A stretch of 64,000 nucleotides of DNA from Pseudocercospora fijiensis CIRAD86 (Eukaryota > Ascomycota > Dothideomycetes > Mycosphaerellales > Mycosphaerellaceae), in assembly GCF_000340215.1 (NCBI RefSeq), contig NW_006921533.1, positions 4,800,979-4,864,978 of the forward strand. The letters are read 5' to 3'. The notes beneath the pieces were generated by a model. The model had not been told where the DNA came from. It worked only from the letters and a program-made list of their open reading frames with translations, and did no database searches. A program made the position numbers and the translations under genes. Shown here piece after piece: positions 771 through 57,414 of this stretch. How positions within the stretch are numbered: position 1 is the first letter of the stretch; every line of letters begins with the position of its first letter.

Positions 771-1849
771 AGTTAAAATAAAATGCTATAGGAAAGTGTT
801 TTTAGTATATATTATAGATTTAGCTTGTTTCGATATTGCTATACGAGAAAATAGTATACTAGGCTATTTTCTTCTAATATTACCCCTAGGGTAGCATTAG
901 AGTTTAGCCTCTTAGGGGTCGCCTAGACACCCCTAGGAGCTTTAATTTAGTAAACTTAAACAAAAGCCGCTCGGAGGAAGGAACTATAATCTCTATTTAT
1001 ACCTAGATCCTAGAAACTAGCCGCTTTACTAACTATCGTTATCTCCTTTAGCTAGGCGGGGGGCGGGGACTTTCTTTTTCTAGTAGAAGGCTTAGCACTA
1101 TCCGAACGAGGTAGCGAATCCCGAAACAATCTACCTAGTTAATAGAGGAACTGTCTAGGCATCCGACCTATAATCTAGAAATTGCTATCGTATAGATAGT
1201 CTTAGCGGGGCCCGCTAAGGTCGATAGGTAATTAATCTATCTCCCTCTCTTAGGCTAGGCGGTAGCTTATCTCGAGTAAGCGGTACTAAATAGGTCTTCG
1301 ACCCGGAGCCGAGTCCTTAGAAGCTAGCTATAGTTATAGACTAGGCCCTAAGCTATAATAGTCCTAAGGGTTTGCAGCTTTTCGGGGTTAAAGCGATGCC
1401 CTCGTTAAGAGGTTTCTCTACTTGTCGTAACGGCCCCTTAAGATACTTCGGTATCGTCCGTATCGTAGGCTCTTATCGTACCCTCGCTTCGGTTATAGCT
1501 ATTCGTACCTAGAGACCACCTTTAACATACCCGAACCTGTTAGATATAAAGAGATAGCCCTACCTTCGGCTCTAATAAAGGACGGAAACTAATACTACTA
1601 CTACTACTTATAGTAATAGTATAGGCTACCGAGGGTAATATAACCTATAGCAATATAGGCAGCTATGTTTAGCAAGATAGGATAACGAGACTGTCGCTTA
1701 GGCTAATAACTAGAGCCCTATAATATAGGCATTGTAGAAGTGTAATATAAACAATGTACTATACGAGGTTAATAATCTGTCTACTTCTATAGAAGGAGGC
1801 CTCTTATATAGGCTTAAAACTGGCCTATAGGTATAGGGCCGGTTACTAG
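771..1849. other. RIPed stretch without recognisable gene
   Basis: CpA/TpG-depleted sequence between the gag-like remnant and the helicase remnant. I see no protein family, only a short GC-rich run near 1,056-1,072 and several CTA/TAG-rich segments. It may contain the LTR and leader of the element to its left, but no repeat pair within the window supports that. Confidence 0.5.
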
Positions 1850-4770
1850 CTAATACTAGCTAGAAAGAGTAAATACAAAGCCTAGTTCTAGTAGCGCTAC
1901 GATAAGATCTTCGATCCTACGACATTACTTAAGCAAGTATAGCAATTAGTCTACGATACGATACGTACCCTAGAAGCTATTAATATACATCGCGATATCG
2001 TTACCTAAGGACTACGAAAGGTTCTCGACAAGATACATCTAGGTAAGGGCTATATACTAAAGGAATCCTAGATCTATAGTGTCTAGGCTCTCGTATTTGC
2101 CTGCTCTAATATAATAATAATAGCGAAGACTAGCGAAGGCAAGAGTTTGCCTTTTTAGGCCTTTAGCCTATTAATAGGTATAGTAGTTATTAAGATTATA
2201 CTATTAAATCGTCTCGGTAAGGAGCATATAGAGGATATACGCGAGACTGCTCGACAAGCTAACTACTTAATTAATATAGTTAATATTACCGTAGAGAATA
2301 AGAGTATAGATCGTAACCTATTTTAGAAGATTATAGATAGCAAGGTCTACTATATTATCCCTAGTCTAGAAACTATAGCTAGCGAGGACTTCCGAGCTAT
2401 TATTCGAGACCTAAAGGCCCGGGCTCGAATTAGTTTAGTTGTAATCGACGAGATATACCTAGTAGCGAAGTAGAAGGAATTTCGCAAGGAATATGCCTAG
2501 ATCTTCTCTCTACGGAAGCTGCTACGTACCGATACGGTATAGTTAGGCTATTCTGCTACTAGTAAGTAGATCGAGCTAAGCTAAGCTAAACTAAACTAAA
2601 CTAAGCTAAGCTAACTATCGCTAGTATCTAAGGAAATAGAGGGATTTATAGCTAAGAATAGTAGCTTCCGACCTCTTAGAAATAAACCGTATAAGACAAA
2701 GGTTCTCCGTAGTAGTATTAATCGACTAGACACTATATACATCCTACGTACTATTAATAAGGACGAGCTTAGCTGCTACGACTACTTATACTTCGTAGTT
2801 AATAATAGCGTCGGTCTAGAAAAGAAGGCGACACCTTAGGGCATTAAGAAGGCTCTACTATTTATCGATAGTCGGAAGTCGGTCTAAGAGCTCGCTAATA
2901 CTATTCGTAGCTAGCTTATTGCCGCGACTGCTAAATGCACCGATCCGAAGAAGCGATATACCTAGGATAATAAGGGCGTTAATATATATACTACTATTTT
3001 ATTCTATACTAGTAGTATAGCTAAGCGCGACTAGACCCGTCGATATAAGTAATATAGCCGTACTATAGATAGCCCCGATAGTCTATCGAACATTCGTATT
3101 ATAATCGCGACGACTGCGTTTAGCGTTAGTCTAAATATTCTAGATATCGAGATTGTCGCCTAGGTTAAGTATCCGATTACTCGAGACATTAAGGATCTAA
3201 TATAGCGGCTTAGTCGTATTAGTCGTGCCCTTCTATAGTAGGGCAAGCGAAGTATAGCCTTAGTCTTCTTGCTATACCTAGTTAATAATAGCAAGAAGCA
3301 GCCTCGCCCGGACTCTTATTACTCGGCGATTAGAGTTAATACTCGAAAATCCTAATAGCATCGCTATACGCTAGGCCGTTCCTTAGGTCTATTACAATTA
3401 TAGATCCCCGGAGAAGATACTAAGGGAGACGGCGATACGAGTGCTACTAGCGATATAGATATAGATATAGATATAGATGCTAGCATAGATCCCTAGTATT
3501 AGACTAAAGTAGAGATAGCTGCCCGCGAGAAGATTCTAAAGATCTAGGTATATTTCTAGAATAATCGATATCGAGACTATAGTATCTACCCTTATAAGGT
3601 AATCCTCTAGTACCTTAGCGAGGATAAAGTAATATATCTATAAGACCTACTATCGAGCGAGTACTACTATAATGCCTATAACCCTAACCTAGATCTCCTT
3701 TATAATAGTAGGCTACTAGTAGAAGCTATAGGTCCGATCTTCCGCAAGCTAGGAAATAGGACACGTCCGGCTATTGCCTTCTAGAAGCTATAGGCGTAGT
3801 TGTCTTCTAAGAATAACAAGTACCTAGAATAGACTTATCGTTGCATATTTAACCTCCCGTTAAAGACTATTCTAGAAGACCGAAGACTCTAGAGTATATG
3901 TAATATATTTACTGCTACTAGCTAGTTCGAGTAATAGGAGAATATAGTCGTTAATTAGCGGCTCCTTAAGTAGAAATCGGTAGAGTTTATCGACTAGTTT
4001 AAAGCTCTAAATATCGACTAGCGCCTATTTGCGTTATATAAGCTAATTAATAAGATTAAGCGGATTAGTACGAGTGTCTTTACTAAGTAGAAGGCTAGTC
4101 TTAACGCGAAAGCTAAGAAGCGCGTAGACAAACAATAAGCTATCGCTACTACTACTTCTACCGCTACTAGACTAATATCTAGTTCTTAATCCGCGGCTAG
4201 CCGATTATTACTAAATCCTCCGATAGTATCTCTAGTACAGCGCCTTGCTATATAGAACGCCGCGCGAAATGCCGTCTAGGCCGGTATTATAGAGTCCTTA
4301 CGTAGCGAGGCAGCGAGAATAGGTCTTCGTATAAATTAGATCGAGAGAGCGACTACTACTACTGCTTCCGGTCCTAGTACCGGCCCTCGCCTACCTAGTC
4401 GCATAGTTAAGCTAAGGGTAGTACTTCTAGGCAATCTAGCCTCTACCTTTCTATCCGCTTCGGCTATTGCTATAGGTGCTACTATCGCTCGTAGTCCGGA
4501 TAATCCGCGTAATAAGCGTTCTACCTCTATAAGTCTAGCAACAAGCTAGGTACCTCGATATAGAGCGCGCCGGATTAATTAAGTTAAATCGGAGCGAGCT
4601 AAGAGAGCCGAGCAGTTATTAAGTACAGTTACTCGCACTACTAAGGAGAGAGGTAGCCGTAAGCTACGTAGGAACCGTACGCTATTAGAAGCTAGTCTCC
4701 GTCTTATAGGCTAGTTACTAGGTAGCTCGCCGATAGGATTACTAAGCCGTCGCCGCTAACTCTACCTAGT
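1850..4770 (+). pseudogene. RIPed RecQ-like DEAH helicase of a repeat element
   Basis: The plus frame decodes, across many TAG/TAA codons, as a superfamily 2 helicase. It shows a Walker A-like TSEGKSL near 2,130-2,150, motif II VVIDEIY near 2,440-2,458, motif III GYSAT near 2,546-2,560, and a C-terminal helicase lobe near 3,100-3,260 (DIEIVAQVKYP, then DLIQRLSRISRALLQQGKRS). This pattern fits the RecQ-type helicases found in fungal repeats and subtelomeres (TLH-like). A long basic C-terminal region follows to about 4,770. The stops are all TAR, as expected from RIP at CAR or TGG codons. Not functional. Relationship to the DUF6589-like gene downstream is unknown. Confidence 0.6.
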
Positions 4771-8422: not shown

Positions 8423-11149
8423 CTACCTAGTACGACGGTCGACGGCACTAGCCTACGTAGAGTTACTACTATCGACGGTAGAATCCTCGATAGCGCTAAG
8501 GTCGCTAGTAGCTACCCGCTTAGCAATAGTAGTAGCCTCTATCTCCTCGTCTATCGATATAGTGCTATAACCCTAATAGTACTGCGTATTACCCTTCGTT
8601 AAAGTCGGCTACCTTCTCTAAGATCTGTATACCTCCGAGCTGCTAGATATTATTAGAGACGTTTGCCGCTAGGGTTTCCGTATAGCTTTGTATACCTATT
8701 AGAGTATAACTTTCTCGGCTCTACTAAATACGGTCGATAGAGGTATCCTTATAGGTATAATAGCTACTTAGCTTGATCCTAGTTAGATTAGTTATTATAG
8801 CACGCAAGACCCTAGACGGCTCCCGATTTAAGGCTACCTTCTTAAATGTAGCCTATATATTATAGGTCGAATTAGCGTATCGGTTAATATCCTCGGAATA
8901 CTCGTAATTATAGAGCTCGAGACACTTATTAGCTGCGACGGTATATCCCTTATTACCGTTTATAGAGACTACACTCGACGTTAGGATTGCTTTTTAAGCT
9001 ACTAGATTAGTACTAGGACTAAGCAACTAGCGTAGGTAGGTTATTAGACGGCTATAGTTGCCTTAACGAGCACTAAAGAATAAGGGGATTAGGAAGTCGA
9101 CTAATCTACGAAGATAGCCGATATTTATATTCCGAATAGACTTACGTAACGTAAGGAATTACTCGATCTCCTTTAGTATTCGAGCTATAGTCGTAAACTG
9201 CGGATCTATACCTAGTTAGCCGCGCTAGGCAGCTAGAGATAACGTATCGTTATATATCTTATTAACAAGATAGATATACTAATTACGAGTAAGTCGAGAG
9301 ATAGCGGCCTCTACTATTTCTATACGACTATCCTCGCTAGCGATAATTACTCGGCCTTTATCGATAAGCTACTAAATAACGAGACCGATAATACGAGATC
9401 GGAAGCTCGTCTTTAATAGCTACTAAACCTCGAAGAACTTAGCCTTGTCCTTGCTAATCTTATTGTCTCTATACTAAAAGGTAGTATTAGCCTTTAACGT
9501 CTAGGATACTAGTAATAGCTCCCTATCTCTATTGTTGTCCTAATAGGTCCGTAACAATGTAAGGCCGCAGTTTATTATAGTATAGAACTAGGTAGGAGAG
9601 AATAAGAGATTGTCTCGCTTATCGTACGTATCCTTACTCTCGACACTCTTATTACGGACAGATAGGCCGTATAGAACAGTTATCTAGTCGCTATTGCAGA
9701 TAATTAGCGGTCTATTAGGTCTATTCTTAAAGTCCTTATCTTAATCTAGGTCTATAAAGTTAAGAAGGATATTATCCTAGACTGCGTATATACCTATAAT
9801 CGTAGCCTCGTCGTTAAAGGATAGTAGTATAGAAAGCACCTTAGTCTAGGTAGCCGGTATCTTATCGATAACTAGCTACTTCGGACGACTAATAGTATTA
9901 CTATTATCGTTATCGTCGTTACTAGCCTCTACTGCCTCCTTCTTAAACATAGCTTTAACGGCCTTCGGGAAAGTATATGCGATAGCCTCGTTAATATAGA
10001 ATAGGGCGGTCTTCTTGCTAATCTTAGTAATCTTAACTATCTCGGTACTAGCAGTTAGATTAGCTACATCCTTTAGAACCTATACCTAGGCCTTATCCTC
10101 GTATATATTCTTAAAGATATTATCTAGATCGAGAGGCTTATCGTAATAGATTATGCCCTTCTTTAAACCGCCCTCTAGGATGCTCTTATTCTCTATAAGG
10201 TACGATATAGTAATACTTAACATTTCGTTAGTCTCGCTACCGCGCTAGACAGTACAGGTCTTTATACGATTAAAGTTGTCGATAGTCTTACTATACTGCT
10301 TATTAGGATCGTTCGCTAGCTCGCTAATCTTCTATATCTAGACCTCTATATTCTTGCCTATAAGAATCTGCATAGTGCGATACGAAGGAACAAGCCCTAG
10401 GTTACTAAGATACTCGAGTATTCGCCGGCTAGCACTATTGCTAACTAGAAAGATGCTAAGCGCCTTCGGGAAATACAAGGCGTTTACGTATACTATCGAA
10501 AACAGGACCTGCGAGGTAATTATTATAATCTGCTTCTAGATCTAGTTATACTTATCGATAAAGGTCTCCTAGTATTGCTTTTAATCTCGCCGTAGGTTAG
10601 GTAATAGTTCCTCGCTAAGAAGTTGATACTAGGTTAGTACGATCTCTTTAATAGTAGTGCTTATACTACTAAGGTTAAACTTAGTATAACTAAAGTCTAG
10701 ATTATATATACTAAAGTAGTCTCGGCTAATAAGGCTCTTTAGTTCTTTGCGGACAATACGACCGCTAAATAGACGCTCTTCTAGAAAGACGTCTAGAAGC
10801 GACTAGAGATTTCTCTCGTACTGCTTTAAGCGCTTAGTCGACCGATAAGGCTATAACTAGCCGTCTTCTACCGTAGATTTTGCTATACCTAGCTTGCCGA
10901 CTAGATACTTAATAAGATATAGTATAGAGATACGGCTCTTCTTTATTAAGGCTTTAATCTCCTCGTACCGCTTATTAAGGGTTGTCCTAGTCTATTCGTT
11001 AGTCGCTACTCGGCGCTGTTCTATAGCGGCCTTTTCGTCTAATTCCTCTTTACTACTATCGCGAGCCTCGAGGTTCTCTTTATCGTTAGATATCTCCTCG
11101 TCGTCCTCGCTAAGGTCTTTATCTATAGATACCTTATCCTAAAAGTTAC
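8423..11149 (-). pseudogene. DUF6589-like repeat-element gene, 3' part (split by hAT insertion)
   Basis: The minus frame decodes over about 900 codons with TAR stops. Recognisable parts are an acidic/charged N-terminal linker, a segment like TIDNFNRIKTCTVQRGSETN followed by EMLSITISYLIENKS, then IYYDKPLDLDNIF, AIAYTFPKAVKA, and KAKFFEVQQLLKTSFRSRII. The order and spacing resemble the DUF6589 proteins common in fungal repetitive DNA, whose function is not established. The 5' 264 bp lie beyond the hAT element at 20,712-20,975. Joining the flanks at the 8-bp duplication keeps the reading frame. The end is placed at the TAG at 8,423-8,425 after an acidic tail. Family assignment is tentative. Confidence 0.5.
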
Positions 11150-11284
11150 TAGACCCCGTAGTAGTTCGGTTTCCGAACCACTAAACGTATATAGTTTGGT
11201 TTCTTAGCGGCGAACTAGCTCCCTAGTTCTAGTTTGGTTTTTTCGAACTATATAGATTCCTAGTTTGAACTAGAGACTGTATTA

Positions 11285-11605
11285 GTTTTACTATAAGGAC
11301 ACTCTTATTCGACTACCGGCTACGATTGCCGGCTATAATAGTAACTCTGTTATATTTACTACGCTCTTTTGCCGTTGCTAGGGCGTAGTTGCCGTTGCTA
11401 GGGCGTAGTTGCCGTTGCTAGGGCGTAGTTTTGCTATAAGGACACTCTTATTCGACTACCGGCTACGATTGCCGGCTATAATAGTTACTAGGTTGTATTT
11501 ACTACGCTTTATTACCGTTGCTAGGGCGTAGTTGCCGTTACTAGGGCGTAGTTGCTGTTGCTAGGGCGTAGTTACTATTGCCGGGGCGTAGTTGCCGTAG
11601 TTACG
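11285..11605. repeat. Subterminal repeats of the hAT element (20-bp GCCGTTGCTAGGGCGTAGTT)
   Basis: Two copies of a longer block that starts TATAAGGACACTCTTATTCG and runs on for about 40 bp lie at 11,291 and 11,434. Each is followed by three or four tandem copies of the 20-bp unit. Subterminal repeats of this kind are usual for hAT ends, where they can bind transposase; that role is inferred here. Confidence 0.75.
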
Positions 11606-11749
11606 AAAGCTTACCTATATAACGTTACGTAGGCGGCAACAATTAGGGCTTCGCGATATTCTTATACTTTCAACTTCTTCCTCTATACCTACACCGATAA
11701 CAACTACTATACGCTGCGCCCCCGCCCCTTTCCCTTATAATAGCAAGAG

Positions 11750-13250
11750 AGAAGCGCGCCGCGCGCTAAATAGAAGATAGAACTAAAGACCGCGAGTTTG
11801 TTTTGCCTAAGCGTCTAACTAAAAAGCGTAAGACTAAAGAGGAGTACTCTACGAAGAAGAATTCCGTACGAGACCGCGAGAGAAAGGATAAGATAGATAA
11901 GGATAAAAGAGCTAAGGATAAGAGAAGAAAGGCGCGGAATAAGGCATTCTATCGATAGCTAGCGCCTATAGAAAAAAGTAAAGGTTAGAATAAGAAGACA
12001 ACCTAAGAGAAGGCTAAGAGGAGGAAAGAATTGCGGCTAGTTTTCGAGCGTAAAGTTCTAGTAGCGTAAGTCAATCTAGCTAGCGGCCGTAGCTAGTAGC
12101 TATAGCTAGCAGCCGTAGCTAGCAGCTATAGCCGGCATATTTTTCTTTAACACGTTAACTAATAGCATTTAGACCTATAGCCGCTACCTCTATCGATACG
12201 ACCGATAATAACGGAGATGTTTAGATAGCCGAGAACAACAATACTAGAGTTCAAGATACCGCGATAGAGCTTAATACTACGAATAAAGGAACTAAAAAAA
12301 GCGAGGAGATACTATACGTCGATCTAGTAATAAGTATAGTCTTAGGGCCTAACGCTATAGACGATAAGCGCTAGGAGTAGATCGAGCATAGTCAAAGAGA
12401 CGAGATACTAGTAAAGGGCTAAGGTATAAGTCCTATCAATCTAGAAAATCATAGTTAAAGCTACTACGAAAAGCTAGCAAGGATTAGAATCGAGACTAGT
12501 CGTCTTTATATCCTCGATATAGAGTAGAAGTTTCTTTATTAGTATTAGAGCGAAGCCTTTGTATCTATAAAGGCAAAGTAGCTTGCGATTAATGCGATCG
12601 GGGCTAGGTATCTAGGGACGGTAGAAGTATTACTATAGGAGGAAGGGGTACAGGTAATTATTCTATACTCGGCATATATAGCCGGCGTTCGTAGCCGGCA
12701 GATACTAACAGTTAAATAGAAAGCGTTTCTCGAAGGCAGAGTGCTACTGCTATATAAAATCTTTACTAAAGCAGAGAGGGCTTGTATCCGGAATCTAAGC
12801 TACTAGTAGGATAGGTTAGCGTTAGAATTCTCTAAATCTCTATATAAGCCTCCGAAGGATTACCTATTTCAGCGATACGGCTTTATCTCGACTACTCCGT
12901 AGGTACCCGAAGAAGCTCGAGCGCTCTTTAAGGTCTTTACTAAGAAGCGGAAGGAGTTCGAGGATTAGGATTAGTTAATAGAGCTATTAGTTAGTCTTAG
13001 GTTTCGTAGTTAGACTCGGCCTAAGCATTTGCTTATCGAGTGTCTTATACCGAAAGAGGATAGATTAAGACTAAAAACGAGCTTAGATTCGTTAGATATA
13101 GTAGCTCGGTTCCGTTAGTAAGAGAGAGCCGCCGTATAGAAGGCAAAATTCAGGTAGTTAGGGTAGCTAGGAAAGAAATTCTAGTAGTTAGGCTAGCTAG
13201 GGTAGCTAGGAAAAAAAATCTAGTAGTTAGGTAGCTAGGAAACAAAAAAA
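11750..13250 (+). pseudogene. Unknown cargo ORF of the hAT element (RIPed)
   Basis: The plus strand decodes as a lysine/arginine-rich stretch (11,760-12,060), then from about 12,180 a long frame interrupted only by TAR stops. Pieces include AIELNTTNKGTKKSEEILYV, SYYEKLARIRIETSRLYILD and PPKDYLFQRYGFISTTP, ending in a Gln-Leu-Gly repetitive tail near 13,200. I do not recognise the family. Length is about 330 codons for the main frame. It lies directly upstream of the transposase and has the same orientation. Confidence 0.4.
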
Positions 13251-13382
13251 AAGGTAGCTAGCTATTTACTACCTAGCTATTCCTAACGATACGATGCTAT
13301 AAAAGAAAGGGTGTTTCTCTATAGCTACTAGTATATATCTACTACTCCTAAGTCCTTACCTTACCGTACGAAACCTTAAAAC

Positions 13383-16300
13383 ATGCCGACCGACATTGTA
13401 TATACACTAGGCGCTATACTAGGAAGGGTAATAACGAGACGATAGTCGAAACAGTCTAGTATACGAGCGAGATTGCGACAACGTCGAGAGGAGGTCGTAT
13501 ACTTACCTTCGAGCCTATCGAGTCCTAGACTACGATTAGGGCTAGATTTATCCTCTCCGAATCCTAGTAGTAGGAATTCATTATAAGGTACTACTACCTA
13601 GTCCTTACCTTTACGGAGTCTAAGTAGAAGGTTATTCGGAGATATAAGAATATCGAGTATTAACCCGGAAATCTTCGAAAAGGCTAGCTAGGCGTATCTT
13701 TAGAAACCCGAGTATATAGAGCAGTTCAATTAATAGGTCTATAAGATATAGTTCCCTTTATACTTACGTTCGAAGGAGTATAAACTCCGGAAGTACTCGA
13801 TACGATAGGGGAGTAAGGAGCGAACGGACATATTCTAGAAGTTCTTTATAGAGGGGGTATTACACCGTTATACGACTTCTCGACTTAAAGGTTAACTAGT
13901 AATTGTCTACAACTTCTACGGTTTAATCTTAAAACACCCGAAACTAGGGGATAGGAACTTATCGCCTACGAACTATCTCTATTCTAAACAGTATCGGGAA
14001 TCTTAAGGAGAGAGGAGAGTTAATATAGATATAGCGTTCTAGAAAGAGGTATATCTTCTAAAATGCCGGCTACAGCTACCGGCTATAGCTACCGGCTATA
14101 GATTCCGGCTACCTAAATTAACCGTAGAGATCTAGCTAATTATTATAGGCTACGCTTAAGGAAGCTCTAGGATTAAAGGCTACCGATTTCTCCCCCGAAG
14201 ACTTCAAGTAACTAGCAAACGAAATGCTAGCTATAAACGGTCTTCCGGAAGACTTCTACGAAAGGGAGTCTATATAGAAGATATACCTATATCTTACAAA
14301 CTACCCTCCCCTATTTCTCGGCGCGACAACCTAGCGTATTATATTCGAAAAGAACAAAGAGGCTACGTTAGACGACATTCGGGAGATCCTCCGTAATACT
14401 CGCCGAGTAGCTATTACTATTAATAGCTAGTTAAGCCGGACTATAAGAGCCTCCTTCCTCTCGATTATACTATACTTTATTAATTCGGATTAGAAACTCT
14501 AGGAACTTATAATCGGATTCCCTAAAATTCTAGGTTCCTATACTAGTAAAGACATAGCGAAGCTTGTCTATACGGTAATAGATAGGGTTAGCGTAACAAC
14601 GAAACTGATCTCGATTACTATAGACAACGCTAGTAATAATCGAACATTGTATAAGGCGTTATATATACAATTCACTCGTATATGTCTTTAAAATTACTAA
14701 TTGTATCGATAGGGTCGAGTGCGTAGAGGAGATTATAAGGTCTATAATCTAGCTTAATCTTCCGAATATTAAGCTCGCTACGATTCCGGATACGTACGAC
14801 AATACGCACGATAATAATAATAAAGAGGAGCCTATTAATAGCCCTAGCCCTATTAAATCGGAGCCGACGTCGTTACTAGTTATATCCCTATAGAAGTTTC
14901 CCTACCTCGCTTATATAGTTCAAATCGCGATCCGAGCCCTCTTTAAGACGCTTAAAATTGCACTATTAAACGACGACTAATAGAAGATCCTAGATAAGGA
15001 TAAAGCAAAGTCGAAAGTCGAGAAACTTATTATAGCAATAAGACGGGATAAGGTAGAGAGCCTCGCTCTCGTTTTATATAAGGTATAACTTTTGTCCGTA
15101 GCCGGCACCTATAGCCGGCAACCTAGTATAGTTCTAACTCTTTTTCTCTAGCTTCGTCGTCTAGCAATATATACGAACTCGAGCTTATAGAGATATAACC
15201 GATTCGAGGCTATTTAAAAGAACCTAATCGAGCGCCCTAAAACCGATGCCTAGAATATCGTATAGAATAAGCGATAGCAAAAGCGGCCTCCTTAGCGCTT
15301 ACTCCGTTTTACCTAAGACGTTAAGACCCGGTTCGATTCGACTTTCTATATAGTTACGAGGGGATATACTTTACGTACTGCTCTCGAGATCTATTAGAGT
15401 TCCGAGGGTATTAAGTAGCTCGGCCTTACCGCCGCCGAATAGCGCTAAGCAGAGTATCTCGTCGATATTAGTAAGTATTACGCGAAGGTTACTACTACGA
15501 TTAAAAGAACCCGAGGACCGACGATCTACCTTGTCTTTACGTACTACAACTAGCTCTTTAACGAGCTCGAGGAAACCGTAGCTAAGCTAGCTAAGAAGAG
15601 CGTTCCCTAGAAAGTAGCTATAACGAAAGCTATAGACACCTCCTATACTAAGTTGTATAAATATTATAGTGCTACCTTTAACTCGTTCGGGGATATCTAT
15701 AGCGTTACGTACTTGCTTAATCCGGTAGAAAAGGATATATACTAGCAGAGGCCGGAATAGAAGGCGGACGAGGTATAGCCGAAGCATTACTAGACTATTC
15801 TAGAAAAGATATTCTACGAGCGTCGGAAAGAAACTAGTCTAAATATAGCTCCTATAAAGAAAAAGAAGGTTTAGAAGGCTCCGATATTATACCTGTTTCG
15901 TAGGTAGGAAGTAGAGGCAGAAGAGGAAGCAACTACTAAAGTAAATAAAGAAGAGTTCGATCTCTATCGGCGCGCGAGTAAGTATAAACCCGTAGGCTCG
16001 GAAAGAGGGCTAATAATCTCTAGATCTTACCGGTCTTCTAGACGAATTTAGAGACGATATTCTCGCTATATAGCAGCGGTTAGAGCCTAAGTTTCTAACG
16101 ATAGCGTCGGTCGCTCGGGACGTCCTCGCTATCCTAAGCGTAGGTATAGGCTATAAGAGGTCTTTTAGTATCGCTCGTTACTAGGGCCGCTTTAATCGAA
16201 TATACTCGCCTACTACCTTCGAATCTATTATAGTATTCCGATACTATCTCCTCTACTAGAATCGCTAAGGCAGGTTACTAAAGATTATACTAAAGGAGTT

Positions 16301-16500
16301 AATCGAGGAATTAGAAAACCTTAAGATCGAAGAAACCTAGGAGCGCGAAGAGAATACGAAATTTAGTCTAAGCGAAACCCTAATTAGCGATAACGAAGAG
16401 GAGGAGGGCGGAGGTAGAAGGCGATACCGGGTCGAGAAGCGGAAACGTATATAGGCTTAGAGCAGCTTTAAGGAGACGAAGCGTTTACGTATAAGGTAAT
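13383..16500 (+). pseudogene. hAT transposase (RIPed)
   Basis: The decoded plus frame contains the hAT catalytic-core block around 14,455-14,665: FLSIILYFINSD-KL-ELI, GFPKILGSYTSKDIAKLVY and LISITIDNASNNRTLYKAL, matching the conserved DNASNN region. Near 16,075-16,250 lies the C-terminal dimerisation region, with FLTIASVARDVLAIL and a serine/arginine-rich helix followed by TFESIIVFRYYLL. TAA/TAG codons interrupt it throughout, as RIP predicts. The N-terminal zinc finger was not resolved. The gene explains mobility of the 9.56-kb element. Not functional in this copy. Confidence 0.7.
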
Positions 16501-16667
16501 ATAGCCGGCGTATATAGCCGGTATATATCCGAAATGTGTTTCGAATTCCTAGGACTTAAACAGACTAGTTGCTATAGCAACCGACCCCGCTTACCTACGG
16601 ACTATTTCTAATTCTCTATTCGCTCTTCCTCTCCTTCTTCCCTTTCCCTATATTCTTAAAGACAAAT

Positions 16668-17460
16668 ATGCCTTAAGGATTCGGCTCTTCGGGCCTTCCT
16701 AAGCCGGCTACCTCCCCTTCCTTAAGCTACTATCCTTTATTCGAATCTAACGATAACCTAATAAGGCGGTTTAATAGAAGACTATTTGTTCTAGAAGGTA
16801 AGAAGCATTAATATCTCCTTACGATTATATGCTTATTAATTTTCTAGGTCCTACCGATATACCCTCGTCGCCTAAACGCGCAGATAAATATCTTTAGAGG
16901 CTAAAGGGTAAGGGTAAAGTAAGCTAAGTATAGGGAGACTATAGCGAGAACGAGATATCGGAAGAGCAAGGCTCTCCGTAGTATATACGAAGGAAGGGGG
17001 TTCCTCGGAAAACAGTACCGAAAAATAAGAAGGCTATAGGTAGATAGGAGAAGGCTAAAAAGAGTAGGCGGACGAAGACTATCGCGAAGAAAAGTTATCT
17101 TTCTATTAAAAGAAAGGGAACAAGGCAGGACTCGACGATAAAGAAGCGGCGCTTTAAACTAGATACTATTGCCCTTCGCTAGATCCGGCTTTTCTAAAAC
17201 AAAAGAGGGACCGAGCTTTTAATCCCTAAGACTCCCTTCTAGCGACTCGTCCGAGAAATTACATTAGATTTTCGGTCTAATATACGATTTACGGCTAAGG
17301 CGATTAGTGCTCTTTAGGAAGCTACGGAGGCATTTCTCGTAACCGAGCTTAAGCTTTTAAACCTCCTTGCTATCTATACGAAGCGGGTTACTCTTCAAAA
17401 TAAAGATATATAGCTTCTAGCTAAAATTCGGCGTCGGTTTATAGCGGATTAGTTAGAAAT
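16668..17460 (+). pseudogene. Histone H3-like protein gene 1, hAT cargo (RIPed)
   Basis: An ATG at 16,668 opens exon 1. A GTAAGA...TTTCTAG intron (16,798-16,847) joins in frame to exon 2. After a long Lys/Arg-rich tail, the frame from about 17,146 decodes as a histone fold of H3 type: RRFK-DTIALR-IRLF, TELLIPKTPF-RLVREI, DFRSNIRF, EATEAFLV and AIYTKRVTLQNKDI. TAG/TAA codons fall at positions where H3 has Gln (RYQ, PFQRL, LQEA, DIQL). The CENP-A-type insertion between alpha1 and alpha2 is not visible, so it is closer to canonical H3 than to CenH3, though divergent. It may extend into the following ORF. Inactive in this copy. Confidence 0.65.
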
Positions 17461-17539
17461 TGTATTTAGTTGTTAGATTAACCTAGGAGGAGGCCCATTT
17501 TCGTATCCTTTTGCCGGCTACAGGTACCGGCTATATTTC

Positions 17540-18200
17540 TGATTTTATCTCCGCGCCGTCCCTAAATCTAAGGTACGAAGTAGAAACCTAGCGCTCTATA
17601 TTCACCCGGCTATTACAGAGACGAGCTACATTTAGATTAGTTTCTTCGTATATCGCGACCTAGCGGGTAGTAAGCGAAAGGGCGATAGAACGTTTATAAT
17701 ACGTCTCTATTTAGACCTAAAACACAAAGGTCCTAAGGAGCCCTAGCATCCTAACTATAAGGAGATTCTTTAGTATTAGCACTTTGATCCTCTATACTAC
17801 GAGGTAGATAGCAAGCCTACGAGAGAGAAACTTTAACGAGAAATTCTCTATAATACGTAGCGCTATTGCATAGCTACAGATACGTACTAAGTCCGGTAAC
17901 TCGAAGAAGAATTAAGACAGCGTATTAGCGACCGAGAAAGAGATCGATAGTATACTAGTAGAGTCGAGGTCTTATAAGCGAAGCATAAGATAATATAGGC
18001 TCTTAGTCGTATAGAGTAACGTACTATATAAATAACTAGGCGTACTACTCTTATTCACTTACGACCTATATCCTAGGATACTCTTCTCGTACTTTTTATA
18101 CTCTTTTCTAATACCTCACCTATAAGCGCTCCGCGACAACCGAGTAAATATAAGCTATAGGGTTTCCGCTCGGTACCTTAGCCTCCGAGATAGGGCGGAG
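17540..18200 (+). pseudogene. Unknown ORF or 3' exon after H3-like gene 1 (RIPed)
   Basis: From about 17,563 a frame with TAR stops decodes through AVPKSKVRSRNLALYIHP, FFVYRDLAGSKRKGDRTFII and LYLDLKHKGPKEP, then a Gln/Arg-rich helical region (about 17,870-18,030). A GCCGGC-motif pair at 17,515-17,535 separates it from the histone-like frame, as these motifs do inside a clear intron of H3-like gene 2. It could therefore be a further exon of H3-like gene 1 or a separate gene. Family not recognised. Confidence 0.35.
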
Positions 18201-18744
18201 TTGAATTTAGAGCGATAGCCGGCACTTATAGCCAGTATATAGAGACGGTAGTAGGCCTTTTCCTACTAAATAACTAGCTTGTTTAGTATAGCCTACCTAA
18301 TATTTCTTATATTTACTAGTAATAGGCCTAGGTTACTTATAAGATTACTATAGCTAGTAAAGGCATTACTAAAGAATATCTATACTATAGTAAGATACTA
18401 TTATTACGCCGGCTATTTATTAAAAGGAGGCTTTCGCCTATTACTATACCGGCTATATATGCCGGCTATATTTCAAAGTCTCCCGTACCTGCCTTTTTTA
18501 GCCGTACCTGCCTTTTTTAGCCGTACCTGCCTTCTTTCCTTGCTCTAACGTTACTATAATATAGGCTTGCGCGAAGCTTACTCTATTACCTAGCGATACC
18601 GCGACATTACCGCTATATTCAACCTTCGCATCGATACCTATACCTCTACGCTCTATATCTACTACCTCCGTAATACCCTCGCTCCGCGCGCGCCTTCGTA
18701 TACCTTCGCAACGCACTTTTTTCCTTAATTCGACGACTTTTATA

Positions 18745-19437
18745 ATAGCGAGTCTACTTAACTAAGTTACGACGCCTCGTAAGAAGGGACCTAGTACTTC
18801 TACGGGTCGCAATAAGACCGGAAATAGTAGAACGAGTATAGTATATTAACGTAAGAGGGCTGCTACTACTACCGCTAGCTCCGGTACTAGAAAGGGCGTC
18901 GCGAGTAAGGCTCCGCGCAAGACAACGGCGGGCAAGGCTCTACGTAAGACGATAACTAGCGCTTCTACTACTAGTAGCAATCGTACGAAGCGTCGATAGC
19001 GCCTAGGAAGTAAGTCCTATTTATAGCCGGTAGCGTAGCCGGCAGCGTAGCCGGCAGCGTAGCCGGCATTCTTACTGTCTTTTTACTAATCCTTCTTTAG
19101 CCGTAGCCCTCCGTAAGATTCGGCAGTATTAGAAGAGTTCTTAGCTCCTAATCCGCAAAACTCCTTTCTAACGACTTATTCGCGAAATTGCCTAGGATTA
19201 TAGAACGGACCTTCGCTTCTAAGCCTCCGCGATAGGCGCCCTTTAAGAGGCTATAGAAGCCTACCTAGTTCGTATCTTCGAATATATATTTCTCTTCTAC
19301 CTCTTTTCGGACTATACTAATACTATTTTAGCGGTTAACCTTATAGCTATCTACGCGAAGCGTATAACGATTATAGACAAGGATTTTAAAGCACTCGATT
19401 AGATTCTAAAAGGCTAGAATGTCTATATTCGAGACGG
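18745..19437 (+). pseudogene. Histone H3-like protein gene 2, hAT cargo (RIPed)
   Basis: The likely start is ATA at 18,745, a former ATG altered by RIP (TpG to TpA). The first exon encodes a basic tail with KAPRKTTAGKALRKT, similar to the H3 tail. A GTAAGT...TTTAG intron (19,010-19,100) joins so that the protein reads LGTVALRKIRQY, matching the H3 core entry. Exon 2 continues KSS-LLIRKTPF-RLIREIA-DY, TDLRF-ASAIGAL-EAIEAYL, and later AIYAKRITIIDKDF. The stops sit at five glutamines that are invariant in H3. A second intron around 19,275-19,340 is probable but its donor is not clear. Inactive in this copy. Confidence 0.75.
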
Positions 19438-19849
19438 TACTAGGTAGGATAGATGTTCTAGTAGAAAGGATGTTCGTAGTATTATCTATAAGCTTTTCTA
19501 TATACGAAATAAGCCGCTATTATACGGCGCTATATACCGCGCTCTAAATACTCTCTAAGTATATATATATAGTATAGTATACTTTATTAGCCGTACGGAA
19601 TAGAAGTCTCCCAAAATCCCGTTAGTACTAAGGAGTAAAAAGGCCGGCTACGCTGCCGGCTACGCTGCCGGCTACGCTACTAGCTACGCTACTAGGTTTT
19701 TCAAAGAACTAAAAGAAGATAGACATTCCGGTTGATTTGTATTAGTTTAGATTTTTATAAAAAGAAAACAGGGAAAAATAAGGAAGGTTAAAGAGCCTAA
19801 TAGTTATAGTTATAGGCACTATCCCTGTTTTCTAGAGCATATTATACAC

Positions 19850-20281
19850 CTGCCTTCGCAACTCTACCTAATACTCCCTCTAAATATCCTTATACTCTAC
19901 CTACTAAAAATTCAACTAGGTACCTAGACCTGCAGCTGCCTCTATATCTTTTACTATCTTCTATAGGTTGAAGGCCTCTTCTATAGTAGCCTCTACCTCC
20001 TTATATAATACGAAGTTACTACCTGCCCTACCCTTTATATCTCCTAAATAACTAAGAGTTCTAAGGAACGAACTAGCATTCGGCCTTAGTATAGCGAGTA
20101 ACTAGTAGAACGTTCTATAGAGCTGCCTTATAGCTCTTTTATATACTATACCGATACCGAGGGAGGAGCTATCCTAGTACTTAATATTGTCGAATAGTTC
20201 GGTAGGAAAGTATATAAACTTCTTAAGGAGGAGGACTTCTAGGGAAATCGATAAGTTCTGCCTAGATCTAGATAAAGACAT
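19850..20281 (-). pseudogene. Small unknown ORF of the hAT element, minus strand
   Basis: An ATG at 20,281 (minus) opens a frame beginning MSLSRSRQNLSISLEVLLLK, continuing with FIYFPTELFDNIKY and LRPNASSFLRTLSYLGDIKG, with four or more TAR stops. It retains more TG/CA than its surroundings, so RIP is lighter here. About 130 codons, mostly helical, with no recognised domain. It is convergent to the H3-like genes. Confidence 0.4.
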
Positions 20282-20711
20282 TCTACTAAGCAGTTAGGGA
20301 ATTAAACTGTAAACGAAAGGATAAAATTCATACCTAAGGAGTGCAGTTTCCGAACTAAACTATAATGCCTTGTATATATATATGTGCTTTTAATTAGTTA
20401 GTGCCCTTAGCTAATTGTCTATAGATTTAAGGTTATATAAGTACCTTTATACAACTACGTAGCCTAAGTAGGATTCGAAAATTCTATAAGTACTAAGGAC
20501 TAAAAATGCCGGCTACGCTGCCGGCTATACTACTAAGTCTTACAAAGGGCTTGCTTAAAGCTACGTATACATTCGTACACTTCTTAAAAACCGATAAATT
20601 ATATAGTTCGAACTAGCTACTTATATAGTTGCTTAGCAAACTAACCTAAACCAAACTAGAGTTTCGGCTTAGCAAACCAAACTAAACTAAACCGAACTAC
20701 TACGAGGTCTA

Positions 20712-20975
20712 AAAGTTACTAATCTTATCTATCCCGGCTAGTCTAACTAATTCATCTAGAGGGTTAGAGAGAATACTACCGCTACTTAGATAGATTAGTA
20801 GATCGGTCTATACGCCTATAAGAATAGTCTGTTCCTTAGGTCCTTTAGGCAAAGCAGCATCGTCGTCGTCTAGGCTAGTTATATTCTTATTATAGTTATA
20901 AGCGATAGTACTACCGACTAGGTTATTATTAGATAGTAGAACTAAGGTTAAGGAGGATAGATCGTCGCTCGACAT
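20712..20975 (-). pseudogene. DUF6589-like repeat-element gene, 5' part
   Basis: An ATG on the minus strand at 20,975 opens a frame starting MSSDDLSSLTLVLL, passing LDDDDAALPKGPKEQTILIG and ending in DELVRLAGIDKISNF. That frame continues directly into DKVSIDKDLSEDDEE on the other side of the hAT element at 11,149 once the transposon and one copy of AAAGTTAC are removed, with a single TAG (former CAG) at the junction. This shows that the two pieces are one gene interrupted by the insertion. Confidence 0.6.
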
Positions 20976-53895: not shown

Positions 53896-54149
53896 GGTTG
53901 TGTATACCTCCTGCGGGAATAGGAATTTCCGGTCGGAACGTAGAATAGAATATCTAAGCATTCGGAATTCCTGAAATCCACTAATTTGTAGGTATACGAG
54001 TAGGATTATCGAATTGTCCGTACTCTTATAATCGGCCCTTAGTTCCTTCCTCGAACCCTATCGCGAACGCGTCTCCTACTATTTCTATAGCTGTTTCTCG
54101 TACTATTGCTAGTATATACCGCATATTCTAACTCTTAACGAACCCCCTA

Positions 54150-55440
54150 GTATTTAGTATAGCGAAGACTCCTACGAAGAAACCTAGCGTAGGTAGGACG
54201 GCTTTAAATTCGAATAAGAAGAAGGCGACGGCGTAGTAGAAGAAGAAGTTAGAGGATATCGGCTCGCAGTTTCTACGACTAGCTCGTTATAAGTCAACCT
54301 ATATTAAGGCTATACTTCTTAGCCTTAAGAAGTTCAAAGACAATAGCAAAATAACCGATAATTAAACCTTTAAGGCTACCGACTAGCGTACGCTCGCTAC
54401 GTATATATCGCTAAAGTATAAGGTATTTTTTAAGTAGGACTTACTAAAGGGCAAATAGCGTAAGATAAAGAAGGAGTTTAGGCCGTATACGAGGCACCTA
54501 AAGCATATTAGCGGGTAGAGTAGTAACTACCCTCCGCGGCCGGAAAACGAGGAGATTATACGTACGTACTTCGATAGTAACGAAGAGTATCGAGAGTTTA
54601 AGAACGCGGCGCCGGACTTCGCGATAGAAATAGAAAAGATATATAGACGAGACGTTGCGACTAGCGATAACGCGATAAGTAGATAGCGACTAGCGGACGT
54701 AGATTCTAATAGTAGTAAGGGTAAGAGTAAGGGTAAGCCTATAGAAGAGATTAGCTTAGAAGCCGAGTTGCCGGACGAGGAGGTAGAGGTTATTAACGAG
54801 CTAGAAGACGTCGATTTAAGCGGCTTATCTAACTACGAGAGATAGACAATTATTGCCGCTCGGAATACGAGGGCTAATAAGAAGTAGAAGTAGAAGGCGG
54901 TAGCTAAGAAGAAGGTAGAAGCCGGTTACTCGAAGGACTTTAAATAGTCGCTAAAGAAGGCTATACTACTATTCTAGCAAACTATAGCAACCTTAGCTAA
55001 GTTAGTCGACAAGCCGGCTATATAAACTAGCGCTATCTCGATAGTTAGTAACTACTTTATAGACGACGACGTCCTTCTAAATGTTTCCTTTAAGGACAAG
55101 ATACTTATCCTTACCGAGATTGGTACCGAGAATAGTCCTATTAAGTACGCTTAGCTAACTGTTAGTTAGCTTTAAGATACTAAGAAAACCGAGCTATTCT
55201 CGAAGTACTTTATCGCCCTTCTTACTTGTATTAAGTAGGCTTAATAGGCTTAATTAGCGCGTAAAGAACAGCTACGATAATAGCACTAATAGTAGCAGAT
55301 ACGGCCTTAGCTTATAGGTAACTATCCGCCGCAGAATAGATAGTATTAAGTGGAATATAGGAGGCTAGGTTAAGTTAGAAGAATTAGCTAAAGTCGAGGT
55401 TAGCTTTCCGAGTCCGAGCTAATATTTTATATTTAGGAGC
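54150..55440 (+). pseudogene. Harbinger accessory ORF (RIPed)
   Basis: The plus frame with TAR stops decodes as a charged protein: AKKKVEAGYSKDFK, IATLAKLVDKPAI, SIVSNYFIDDDVLLNVSFKD, and earlier an acidic stretch LPDEEVEVINELEDVDLSGL. Autonomous Harbinger elements carry a second Myb/SANT-like or DNA-binding gene besides the transposase. Position and charge fit, but no Myb signature could be confirmed through the mutations. Confidence 0.45.
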
Positions 55441-55849
55441 TCGGAGAGTGCAGTCTTTATACTAATAATAATATAGGGGTTGTAATTGATTCGACTTTGT
55501 TAGCATTCGACTAGGCTTTAACGAACTTTACGTAATTTGCTATTATATAAAGTATAAATTCTATACTCTTTACTTCCTAAAGTTAACCCCGCTAAGACCG
55601 CACTAAAGTAACGTTAAGCATACTCGTAACTGCTAACTAGAGAAACCGAGACCTAGTTTAGAGATAACAATATACGACTAATAGCTATATATAGGAAAGA
55701 ATACTATATTCGCTACCTAAAACGCCCCTCTCGTCCCCCGCTAAATATACTAGGTAGCCTACGACCTCTATATACTATTCCTCGTCCTTCTCCTACGCTC
55801 TACGTATATCTAGACTATATATTTCGAGATAACGCAAGTAACTTAACTA

Positions 55850-56920
55850 CATTCTAACGGCTATATCTTCTCTAAATTGCTATCCTTTATTACCGAGACC
55901 TATATTGCCTAGATCGTTATCTTCTAGCTCTAACAACCCTTTATAATCGTCCTTATTATAAGGTACGTCGTCGAGGTCGTCGAATAGGTAAGTCTCTTCG
56001 TTTAGCGGCTAAGAGCTATGCCCGACAATAAAGTTATAAAGGACAAAGTAGGCGGTAATAAACCTTAGTTGCGCTATAAGCGAATAGCCTCTATAAGCGC
56101 CTTAAGCTAGTATTTTAAACCGCTTCTTTAATACGCCGAAGAGTCGCTCGATAACGTTATAGAGCTAAGAGTGCCGTAGGTTATATAACTCTTCCTTCGT
56201 CTCCGGCCGCAGTTTAGACTTAATCTGTTCTCGAAGGTAATACCTTATCGACTAGTATAGTACTAACAATCGCTTCTTATTAAAGGAGTATCTAGCGTCG
56301 GCAAGATAATAGCGGTTCTTAGGCACGTTAAAGCCTTGCCTTACTATACGGTCGTATATAGTAGTGTCCGCCGCTAACCCTTTATAACTAACTAAGATAT
56401 AGTGCAACTTTATATTAAACCTATAGGCCGCTATTACGTTAGTAGAAACCTATTCTTTGCGATTACGCTATAACGACTAATCTTCCGCTAACAAAGTTAT
56501 AGGTATATAAGAGCCGTTAAGGGCACCGAGCGCACTATAGAAGAAGTTAAACTTGCTAGGCTCTTTACTAGCGCCGAAGGTATATAGCTTCTCGTATAAT
56601 AACTCGTTACCTCGCGGCACCTATATATATTCGCTTTATAGTCGATAGAAGATCTTGCTTACTTCCTTTATAACGCGCGTAAAGGTTTTAAACGAGTGCT
56701 AATATATCCTTCGTAGTATCCTAATCGAGGTATTGTTCCTTAGGAAGTCGTAGAAGATTATAGTCTTCTCGGCGGTCGAAACGGTACTATTACCTATTAA
56801 TCTACTTTCCTCGAGCTTCGTAATTAGGTCCTTTAATACTACCTATCGTAGGCTAGTTACTATATAATAATAGTCTTCTAGACTATTAAGATACCGAAAT
56901 ACCTCCCTCCTACCCTTTAA
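55850..56920 (-). pseudogene. Harbinger DDE transposase, HARBI1-like (RIPed)
   Basis: The decoded minus frame contains GNSTVSTAEKTIIFYDFLRN, FKTFTRVIKEVSKIFYRL, FFYSALGALNGSYIPI (first catalytic region), RNRKE-VSTNVIAAYRFNIK, GLAADTTIYDRIVRQGFN (second Asp region), YYLADARYS, and LYNVIERLFGVLKKRFKIL (third acidic residue region). This order is that of the HARBI1/DDE_Tnp_4 family. Stops are TAG/TAA, mostly at likely Gln or Trp positions. Inactive in this copy. Confidence 0.7.
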
Positions 56921-57414
56921 GGGCTCTATTAGCGTTTAAACTACGCCTATAGGCCTATACTACCGTTTCCGACCGCTTCGAGAACGCGACGAGTACTAGA
57001 AAGCCGTCGAGGTAGTAAGCGTAGCTCTAGCGACCGTACTAACGATAAGAGCGAGAATAATAGGGTTGTCTATAGCGACTTTAATATAATAGCTAAAAGA
57101 GATAGTATTTAGCAAAGGTATATAATATATATATATGCGTTAAAGGGCTATATACGCGACTACGATACGGTCTCCTTAGCTATTACTAATTATAGCAGTT
57201 AAATCCTCGATTTCGAGTAGGTATAGGCTATTCCGACTTTCTAAGCCTAAACTAGTCCAAATACGGCAAACCGCGACCGTAGGCCTATACACTATATCGA
57301 ATATCCTATTCCTACGCTTATAGTCGGATATTGAGGTATACGAGTTAGATATTCTATATAGGAATAGTAGAAACCTACAGGAATGGAATATCCGACCCCT
57401 AGGTATATACAACC

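What the first reader, a model, noticed from the sequence alone, without database searches (positions are those of the whole stretch)
16668..19437. A hAT transposon carrying two histone H3-like genes
Two separate RIPed genes inside the hAT element decode as histone H3-fold proteins. Gene 1 has TELLIPKTPF-RLVREI and AIYTKRVTLQNKDI. Gene 2 has an H3-like tail (KAPRKTTAGKALRKT), an intron whose removal yields LGTVALRKIRQY, then LLIRKTPF-RLIREIA. In gene 2, stops lie at five glutamines invariant in H3 (YQK, PFQR, AQD, FQA, LQE), which is what RIP of CAR codons predicts, so the reading is not a chance match. The genes differ in tail and intron position, so they are not a recent tandem copy. I know of no described DNA transposon that carries H3 genes. 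Possible roles are chromatin evasion, altered nucleosomes at the element, or targeting, all speculative.
Basis: partly seen in the sequence, partly recalled or inferred. Interest (0 to 1): 0.92.

Follow-up and report, generated by a model that had tools for sequence, protein, structure and literature searches.

The report
RIP-killed hAT transposon carrying histone H3
This is one of many mutated copies of a fungal jumping gene that carries two histone H3-like genes, a case already published for the banana pathogen Pseudocercospora fijiensis; the fresh point is that at least one of the two histone genes appears to have introns, which argues against the published idea that it came from a processed transcript.

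Summary
Window 11150-20711 is a 9,562-bp hAT-type element with inverted ends (22 of 23 bases alike), an exact 8-bp target duplication and two RIP-mutated H3-fold genes (Pfam Histone E 1.5e-22 and 3.6e-19, X at every stop). The 3.2 kb across both genes recurs at 97% or more in all 40 scored candidates of 679, the window's own included, so it is no local host-gene insertion. The novelty claim fails: Dhillon et al. 2019 (PMC6710886) described this family in P. fijiensis, and Manning et al. 2013 (PMC3538342) an H3-bearing hAT in Pyrenophora. Additions here: the published 16-residue insertion in the second H3 copy looks like a 48-nt intron; another intron in that gene lies one codon from a host H3 intron, same phase, which argues against the published retrocopy origin for that gene; both genes occur in three diverged groups of copies. 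Transversion tests for selection were inconclusive, and 19 of 23 in-frame stops show no copy with a glutamine codon among 30. Verdict: already known, with a modest correction.

The parts
11150..20711 (+). hAT-type element, 9,562 bp
   Evidence: limits from alignment with two other insertions
11142..11149 (.). left copy of the 8-bp target duplication
   Evidence: identical to the right copy
20712..20719 (.). right copy of the 8-bp target duplication
11150..11172 (+). left inverted end
   Evidence: 22 of 23 bases match the right end reversed
20689..20711 (-). right inverted end
14140..16510 (+). transposase region, broken by RIP; dimerisation-like stretch about 16056-16175
   Evidence: PF05699 E 0.096 in the window copy, 0.0013-0.0044 in 5 other copies tried out of 10 translated; all below the curated cut-off. 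No DUF659 match in the pieces given
16668..17452 (+). H3-like gene 1 with a long N-terminal part; probable intron 16798-16847; probable natural end 17450-17452
   Evidence: PF00125 E 1.5e-22; H3 in solved structures 2.1e-25; acceptor in 30 of 30 copies, donor variable
18751..19417 (+). H3-like gene 2 (start uncertain); probable natural end 19415-19417
   Evidence: PF00125 E 3.6e-19 for the 3' piece; H3 in solved structures 6.6e-25; the tail piece alone has no Pfam match
19010..19100 (+). intron A of gene 2, 91 nt, one codon from host H3 intron 2 and in the same phase
   Evidence: donor in 29 of 30 copies, branch site and acceptor in 30 of 30; alignment gaps of 1, 12, 13 and 34 nt between groups; host exons
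19284..19331 (+). intron B of gene 2, 48 nt: the published 16-residue insertion
   Evidence: acceptor in 30 of 30 copies, canonical donor in 12 of 30; falls at a 16-residue gap against H3

Best explanation
[quoted passage not shown] 2019). Shown here: an element with inverted ends and an 8-bp duplication, present in many copies, with two divergent H3-like genes beside a hAT-like transposase region, and in-frame stops in the H3 genes of all 30 copies aligned. Inferred: a hAT transposase moved the element by cut and paste with 8-bp staggered cuts; the H3 genes were acquired as gene sequence and travelled as cargo; RIP then broke the copies, so this copy makes neither histone nor transposase today. 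Gene 2 has two likely introns, one within a codon of a host H3 intron, so at least gene 2 more likely came from genomic H3-type DNA than from a processed transcript. Gene 1 lacks that intron and has a long N-terminal extension; its origin is open.
For: Length, inverted ends, 8-bp duplication, two H3-like genes and RIP match the published family. Genome of 73.9 Mb with the intact three-exon, 136-residue H3 on contig 6, as published for scaffold 6. Flanking choline-kinase gene: best hit P. musae at 89%. High copy number: 150 of 150 scored histone candidates over the cut-off, 148 of them with stops inside; 40 of 40 scored DNA candidates near full length. Intron signals in 30 copies, length change of intron A between groups, position relative to the host intron.
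Against: The species is inferred, no record of P. fijiensis itself was seen. Intron B is 48 nt, open in frame in the window copy, and canonical at its donor in only 12 of 30 copies; none of the five other-group copies aligned has a canonical donor there. Introns of gene 2 differ less by transversions between groups than its exons do, 1 of 138 against 59 of 504 for group I against II, unusual for introns. No splicing data were seen. Intron A is one codon off the host intron, not at the identical base, so independent gain is possible. The C1 copy has no exact target duplication.
Confidence: 0.85

Rival explanations
1. Published reading: a processed transcript (retrocopy) of the single host H3 gene was captured once by a hAT and passively amplified; the 16-residue insertion in the second copy is a coding mutation.
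For: PMC6710886 reports exon-exon junctions without intron sequence in a de-RIPed, manually edited consensus (passages). Gene 1 runs through the host intron-2 site without an intron.
Against: Gene 2 is interrupted by a stretch with donor, branch site and acceptor, of group-variable length, one codon from host intron 2; the insertion itself carries intron signals.
Confidence: 0.2
2. The H3 variants are working genes of the element, kept by selection because they help the element (own chromatin, target sites or evasion of silencing).
For: Both genes kept in three diverged groups of copies; group-level exon gaps are multiples of three, while intron A gaps are not; no TGA and no gap inside the H3 frames of 30 copies; an H3-bearing hAT also in Pyrenophora, with transcripts of the H3-like gene reported.
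Against: Transversion-only ratios 0 to 3.3 with few changes, no consistent sign of purifying selection; in-frame stops shared widely, 19 of 23 stop columns without any glutamine codon among 30 copies; two single copies have 1-nt exon gaps.
Confidence: 0.15
3. Chance similarity or a single local insertion of a host histone gene into an unrelated repeat.
For: None found.
Against: E-values of 1e-18 or better with stops masked; the 3.2 kb spanning both genes recurs in all 40 scored candidates.
Confidence: 0.01

Closest known systems
H3-carrying hAT family of Pseudocercospora fijiensis and five other Mycosphaerellaceae (Dhillon et al. 2019, PMC6710886)
   Same: About 9.5 kb, inverted ends, 8-bp duplication, one or two H3-like copies per element, a 16-residue insertion in the second, RIP of the copies, intact three-exon H3 elsewhere.
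   Different: The paper calls the genes a transcript or retrocopy without introns and found no dimerisation domain; here gene 2 shows two likely introns and a weak dimerisation match.
H3L-bearing hAT of Pyrenophora tritici-repentis (Manning et al. 2013, PMC3538342)
   Same: hAT element with an H3-like gene and a further ORF between inverted ends.
   Different: 5.6 kb and 2.3 kb forms, one H3-like gene, little RIP; [quoted passage not shown] Not compared here.
Host histone H3 of this genome (contig 6, L001)
   Same: H3 fold; an intron within one codon of gene 2 intron A, same phase.
   Different: Identity, stops left out: gene 1 fold 50 of 88, gene 2 exon pieces 41 of 54 and 11 of 18.

Membership tests
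hAT DNA transposon | short terminal inverted repeats | tested here: met
   22 of 23 bases
hAT DNA transposon | 8-bp target site duplication | tested here: met
   exact in 2 of 3 copies examined at both ends, window included; not exact in the third
hAT DNA transposon | C-terminal dimerisation domain (PF05699) | tested here: inconclusive
   E 0.096 in the window, 0.0013-0.0044 in 5 other copies, all under the curated cut-off; a genome search lists 47 matches, none in the window
hAT DNA transposon | transposase catalytic residues | not tested
   reading frames broken; not assigned
P. fijiensis H3-hAT family (PMC6710886) | 9.5-9.9 kb with 20-bp inverted ends and 8-bp duplication | tested here: met
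   9,562 bp; two others 9,603 and 9,568 bp
P. fijiensis H3-hAT family (PMC6710886) | one or two H3-like copies, the second with 16 extra residues | tested here: met
P. fijiensis H3-hAT family (PMC6710886) | letter-for-letter match to the published element consensus | not testable with these tools
   the consensus is in a supplementary file; no look-ups in supplements were allowed
P. fijiensis H3-hAT family (PMC6710886) | DUF659 domain in the transposase | tested here: not met
   no match at E up to 1 in the pieces given, stops as X; the paper reports it in 277 of 471 elements, so this lowers the claim little
histone H3 | significant match to the histone profile and to H3 chains | tested here: met
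CENP-A (centromeric H3) | closer to CENP-A than to H3 | tested here: inconclusive

The most novel reading that the evidence does not exclude
The two H3 variants are intron-bearing genes of the transposon itself, kept in frame through the splitting of at least three groups of copies and paralleled by another H3-bearing hAT in Pyrenophora; hAT elements of Dothideomycetes may repeatedly recruit H3 variants, one with a long new N-terminus, to change the chromatin on their own DNA or at target sites before RIP destroys them.
Probability: 0.15. Interest if true: 0.75.

Novelty: already known. Interest (0 to 1): 0.3.

Why it matters
The element shows how a transposon can carry an essential type of gene and how RIP then kills the copies while the host gene survives; that was published in 2019. 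If the intron evidence holds, the published retrocopy origin needs correcting for one of the two genes, and the question whether the H3 genes were useful to the element rather than dead weight is reopened.

Tried and rejected
Local host insertion and chance match: rejected. A C-terminal extension of gene 1 through 17540-18120: dropped; the frame has a stop at the end of the fold in all 30 copies, the stretch has no Pfam match, and most of it has no counterpart in the group II locus L003. Proof of selection by transversions: inconclusive. Proof that copies were broken before they spread: one search shows 326 TpA pairs fixed in 30 copies against 215 variable sites; the spectrum rises towards fixation, so saturating RIP would explain it as well. 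Homologues of the first ORF: none of 1292 candidates. Homologues of gene 1: 2 of 108 candidates. Literature: one search listed 4 papers and one search listed 4, with the two cited papers in both; one search returned 0. Of the others listed, PMC4994206 was seen in passages only and merely cites Manning et al.; PMC8616336, PMC6082228 and PMC12030055 were seen as listings only.

Full report
What is there. The window is contig 2, 4800979-4864978, of a 73,937,190-base genome in 30 contigs. Window 1-22000 has RIP-type dinucleotide bias; 22001-54000 has not. Comparison with two other insertions gives the element's limits, 11150-20711, 9,562 bp; the other two are 9,603 and 9,568 bp. The ends are inverted (22 of 23 bases) and the window copy is flanked by an exact 8-bp duplication, as is the copy on contig 8; the copy on contig 1 is not exactly so.

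The two histone genes. With X at every stop, gene 1 matches PF00125 at 1.5e-22 and the 3' piece of gene 2 at 3.6e-19; the gene-2 tail piece alone has no match. The nearest solved chains are histone H3 (the best 60 of 176 and of 175 were shown). Identities with the intact host H3, stops left out, are 50 of 88 (gene 1 fold), 41 of 54 and 11 of 18 (two gene-2 pieces); gene 1 against gene 2 is 32 of 49 and 12 of 22. So they are not a recent tandem copy. Gene 1 has a long N-terminal part before the H3 fold that is recognisably shared between the groups aligned.

Copy number. A histone-profile search of the genome scored 150 of 772 first-look candidates; all 150 are over the cut-off and, as I read the list, 148 carry stops inside, the window's gene 1 among them. 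A DNA search with 3.2 kb across both genes scored 40 of 679 candidates; all 40, the window's own included, are near full length at 97% or more. A search with 431 bp of gene 2 scored 40 of 448, all 40 full length at 98% or more. Counts are lower bounds because only the best candidates are scored.

Prior publication. Dhillon et al. 2019 (PMC6710886; I read the abstract, the Results and part 1 of 2 of the Discussion, and passages) report in P. fijiensis 471 elements with 784 H3-like copies, 133 full-length ones of 9.5-9.9 kb, 20-bp inverted ends, 8-bp duplication, one or two H3 copies per element, a 16-residue insertion in the second, RIP of the copies, and an intact three-exon 136-residue H3 on scaffold 6. 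Manning et al. 2013 (PMC3538342; passages) report a hAT with an H3-like gene in Pyrenophora. In the present genome the intact H3 is on contig 6 with three exons and 136 residues. A flanking choline-kinase gene has P. musae as best hit at 89%. That the window is P. fijiensis is an inference, a strong one; no record of that species itself was seen.

Introns. Gene 2 breaks off at 19009 and resumes at 19101. The 91 nt between begin with a donor in 29 of 30 aligned copies and hold a branch site and acceptor in 30 of 30; between groups this stretch shows gaps of 1, 12, 13 and 34 nt. The site is one codon from host H3 intron 2 and both are phase 1. The published 16-residue insertion is the 48 nt at 19284-19331: acceptor in 30 of 30 copies, canonical donor in 12 of 30, the other 18 altered at its first base in the RIP manner; it lies where gene 2 has a 16-residue gap against H3. 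By arithmetic on these coordinates the three exon lengths keep one frame. Gene 1 has a less certain intron at 16798-16847: acceptor in 30 of 30, GT donor in 14 of 30.

Groups of copies. Sorted by identity, the copies fall into at least three groups (I as the window, II as L003, III as the 80-85% matches). A motif search found both H3 folds in 5 of 8 sequences examined (group I, three of group II, one of group III) and one of the two in the other 3, all group III. Exon gaps in the alignments are 3, 3, 9, 15, 21 and 21 nt in gene 1 and 3 and 30 nt in gene 2; two single copies also have 1-nt gaps (six sequences per gene; gap placement depends on the alignment).

Transposase. A dimerisation-like stretch, which the paper did not find, gives PF05699 E 0.096 in the window and 0.0013-0.0044 in 5 of 5 other copies given (of 10 translated), all under the curated cut-off. 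A genome-wide search with PF05699 lists 47 matches from 84 candidates, all scored; none lies in the window. No DUF659 match appeared in the pieces given.

Results against a functional reading. Transversion-only ratios (RIP makes transitions) run from 0 to 3.3 with few changes. Introns of gene 2 have fewer transversions than its exons: 1 of 138 against 59 of 504 for I against II (Fisher 8e-6), 2 of 117 against 58 of 474 for II against III (2e-4), 3 of 117 against 33 of 474 for I against III (0.08); I cannot explain this. Of 23 in-frame stop columns of the window copy in the pieces examined (two probable natural ends and one column beyond included), 19 show no glutamine codon in any of 30 copies, so I cannot show that the H3 frames were open when the family spread; saturating RIP would give the same.

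Conclusion. The intron evidence is a modest correction to the published account of how gene 2 was acquired.

Noticed in passing
window 19020-19090, 19640-19690, 20480-20530: The GCCGGC-type tandem repeat inside intron A recurs, also inverted, downstream in the element; it pairs as an inverted repeat with the 3' part, and similar motifs lie in other likely introns of the element.
   Followed up: no
window 19830-20290, minus strand: A protein-like reading frame on the opposite strand near the right end; no Pfam match over its cut-off.
   Followed up: partly
window 17600-18200: A stretch between the two H3 genes found at 97% or more in all 40 scored candidates of 408, mostly without counterpart in the group II locus L003.
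   Followed up: partly
window 12150-13240: A first, RIPed ORF of unknown function upstream of the transposase; no Pfam match and no homologue among 1292 candidates.
   Followed up: partly
gene 2, window 18760-19417, compared between groups: Introns changed less than exons by transversions, unexplained; it could mean fast protein change or constraint on the introns.
   Followed up: partly
window 54000-57000: A second RIPed island between non-RIPed stretches.
   Followed up: no
window 1507-1859: 353 bp that match, at 95%, the flank of the contig 8 copy of the element, so probably another repeat family.
   Followed up: no
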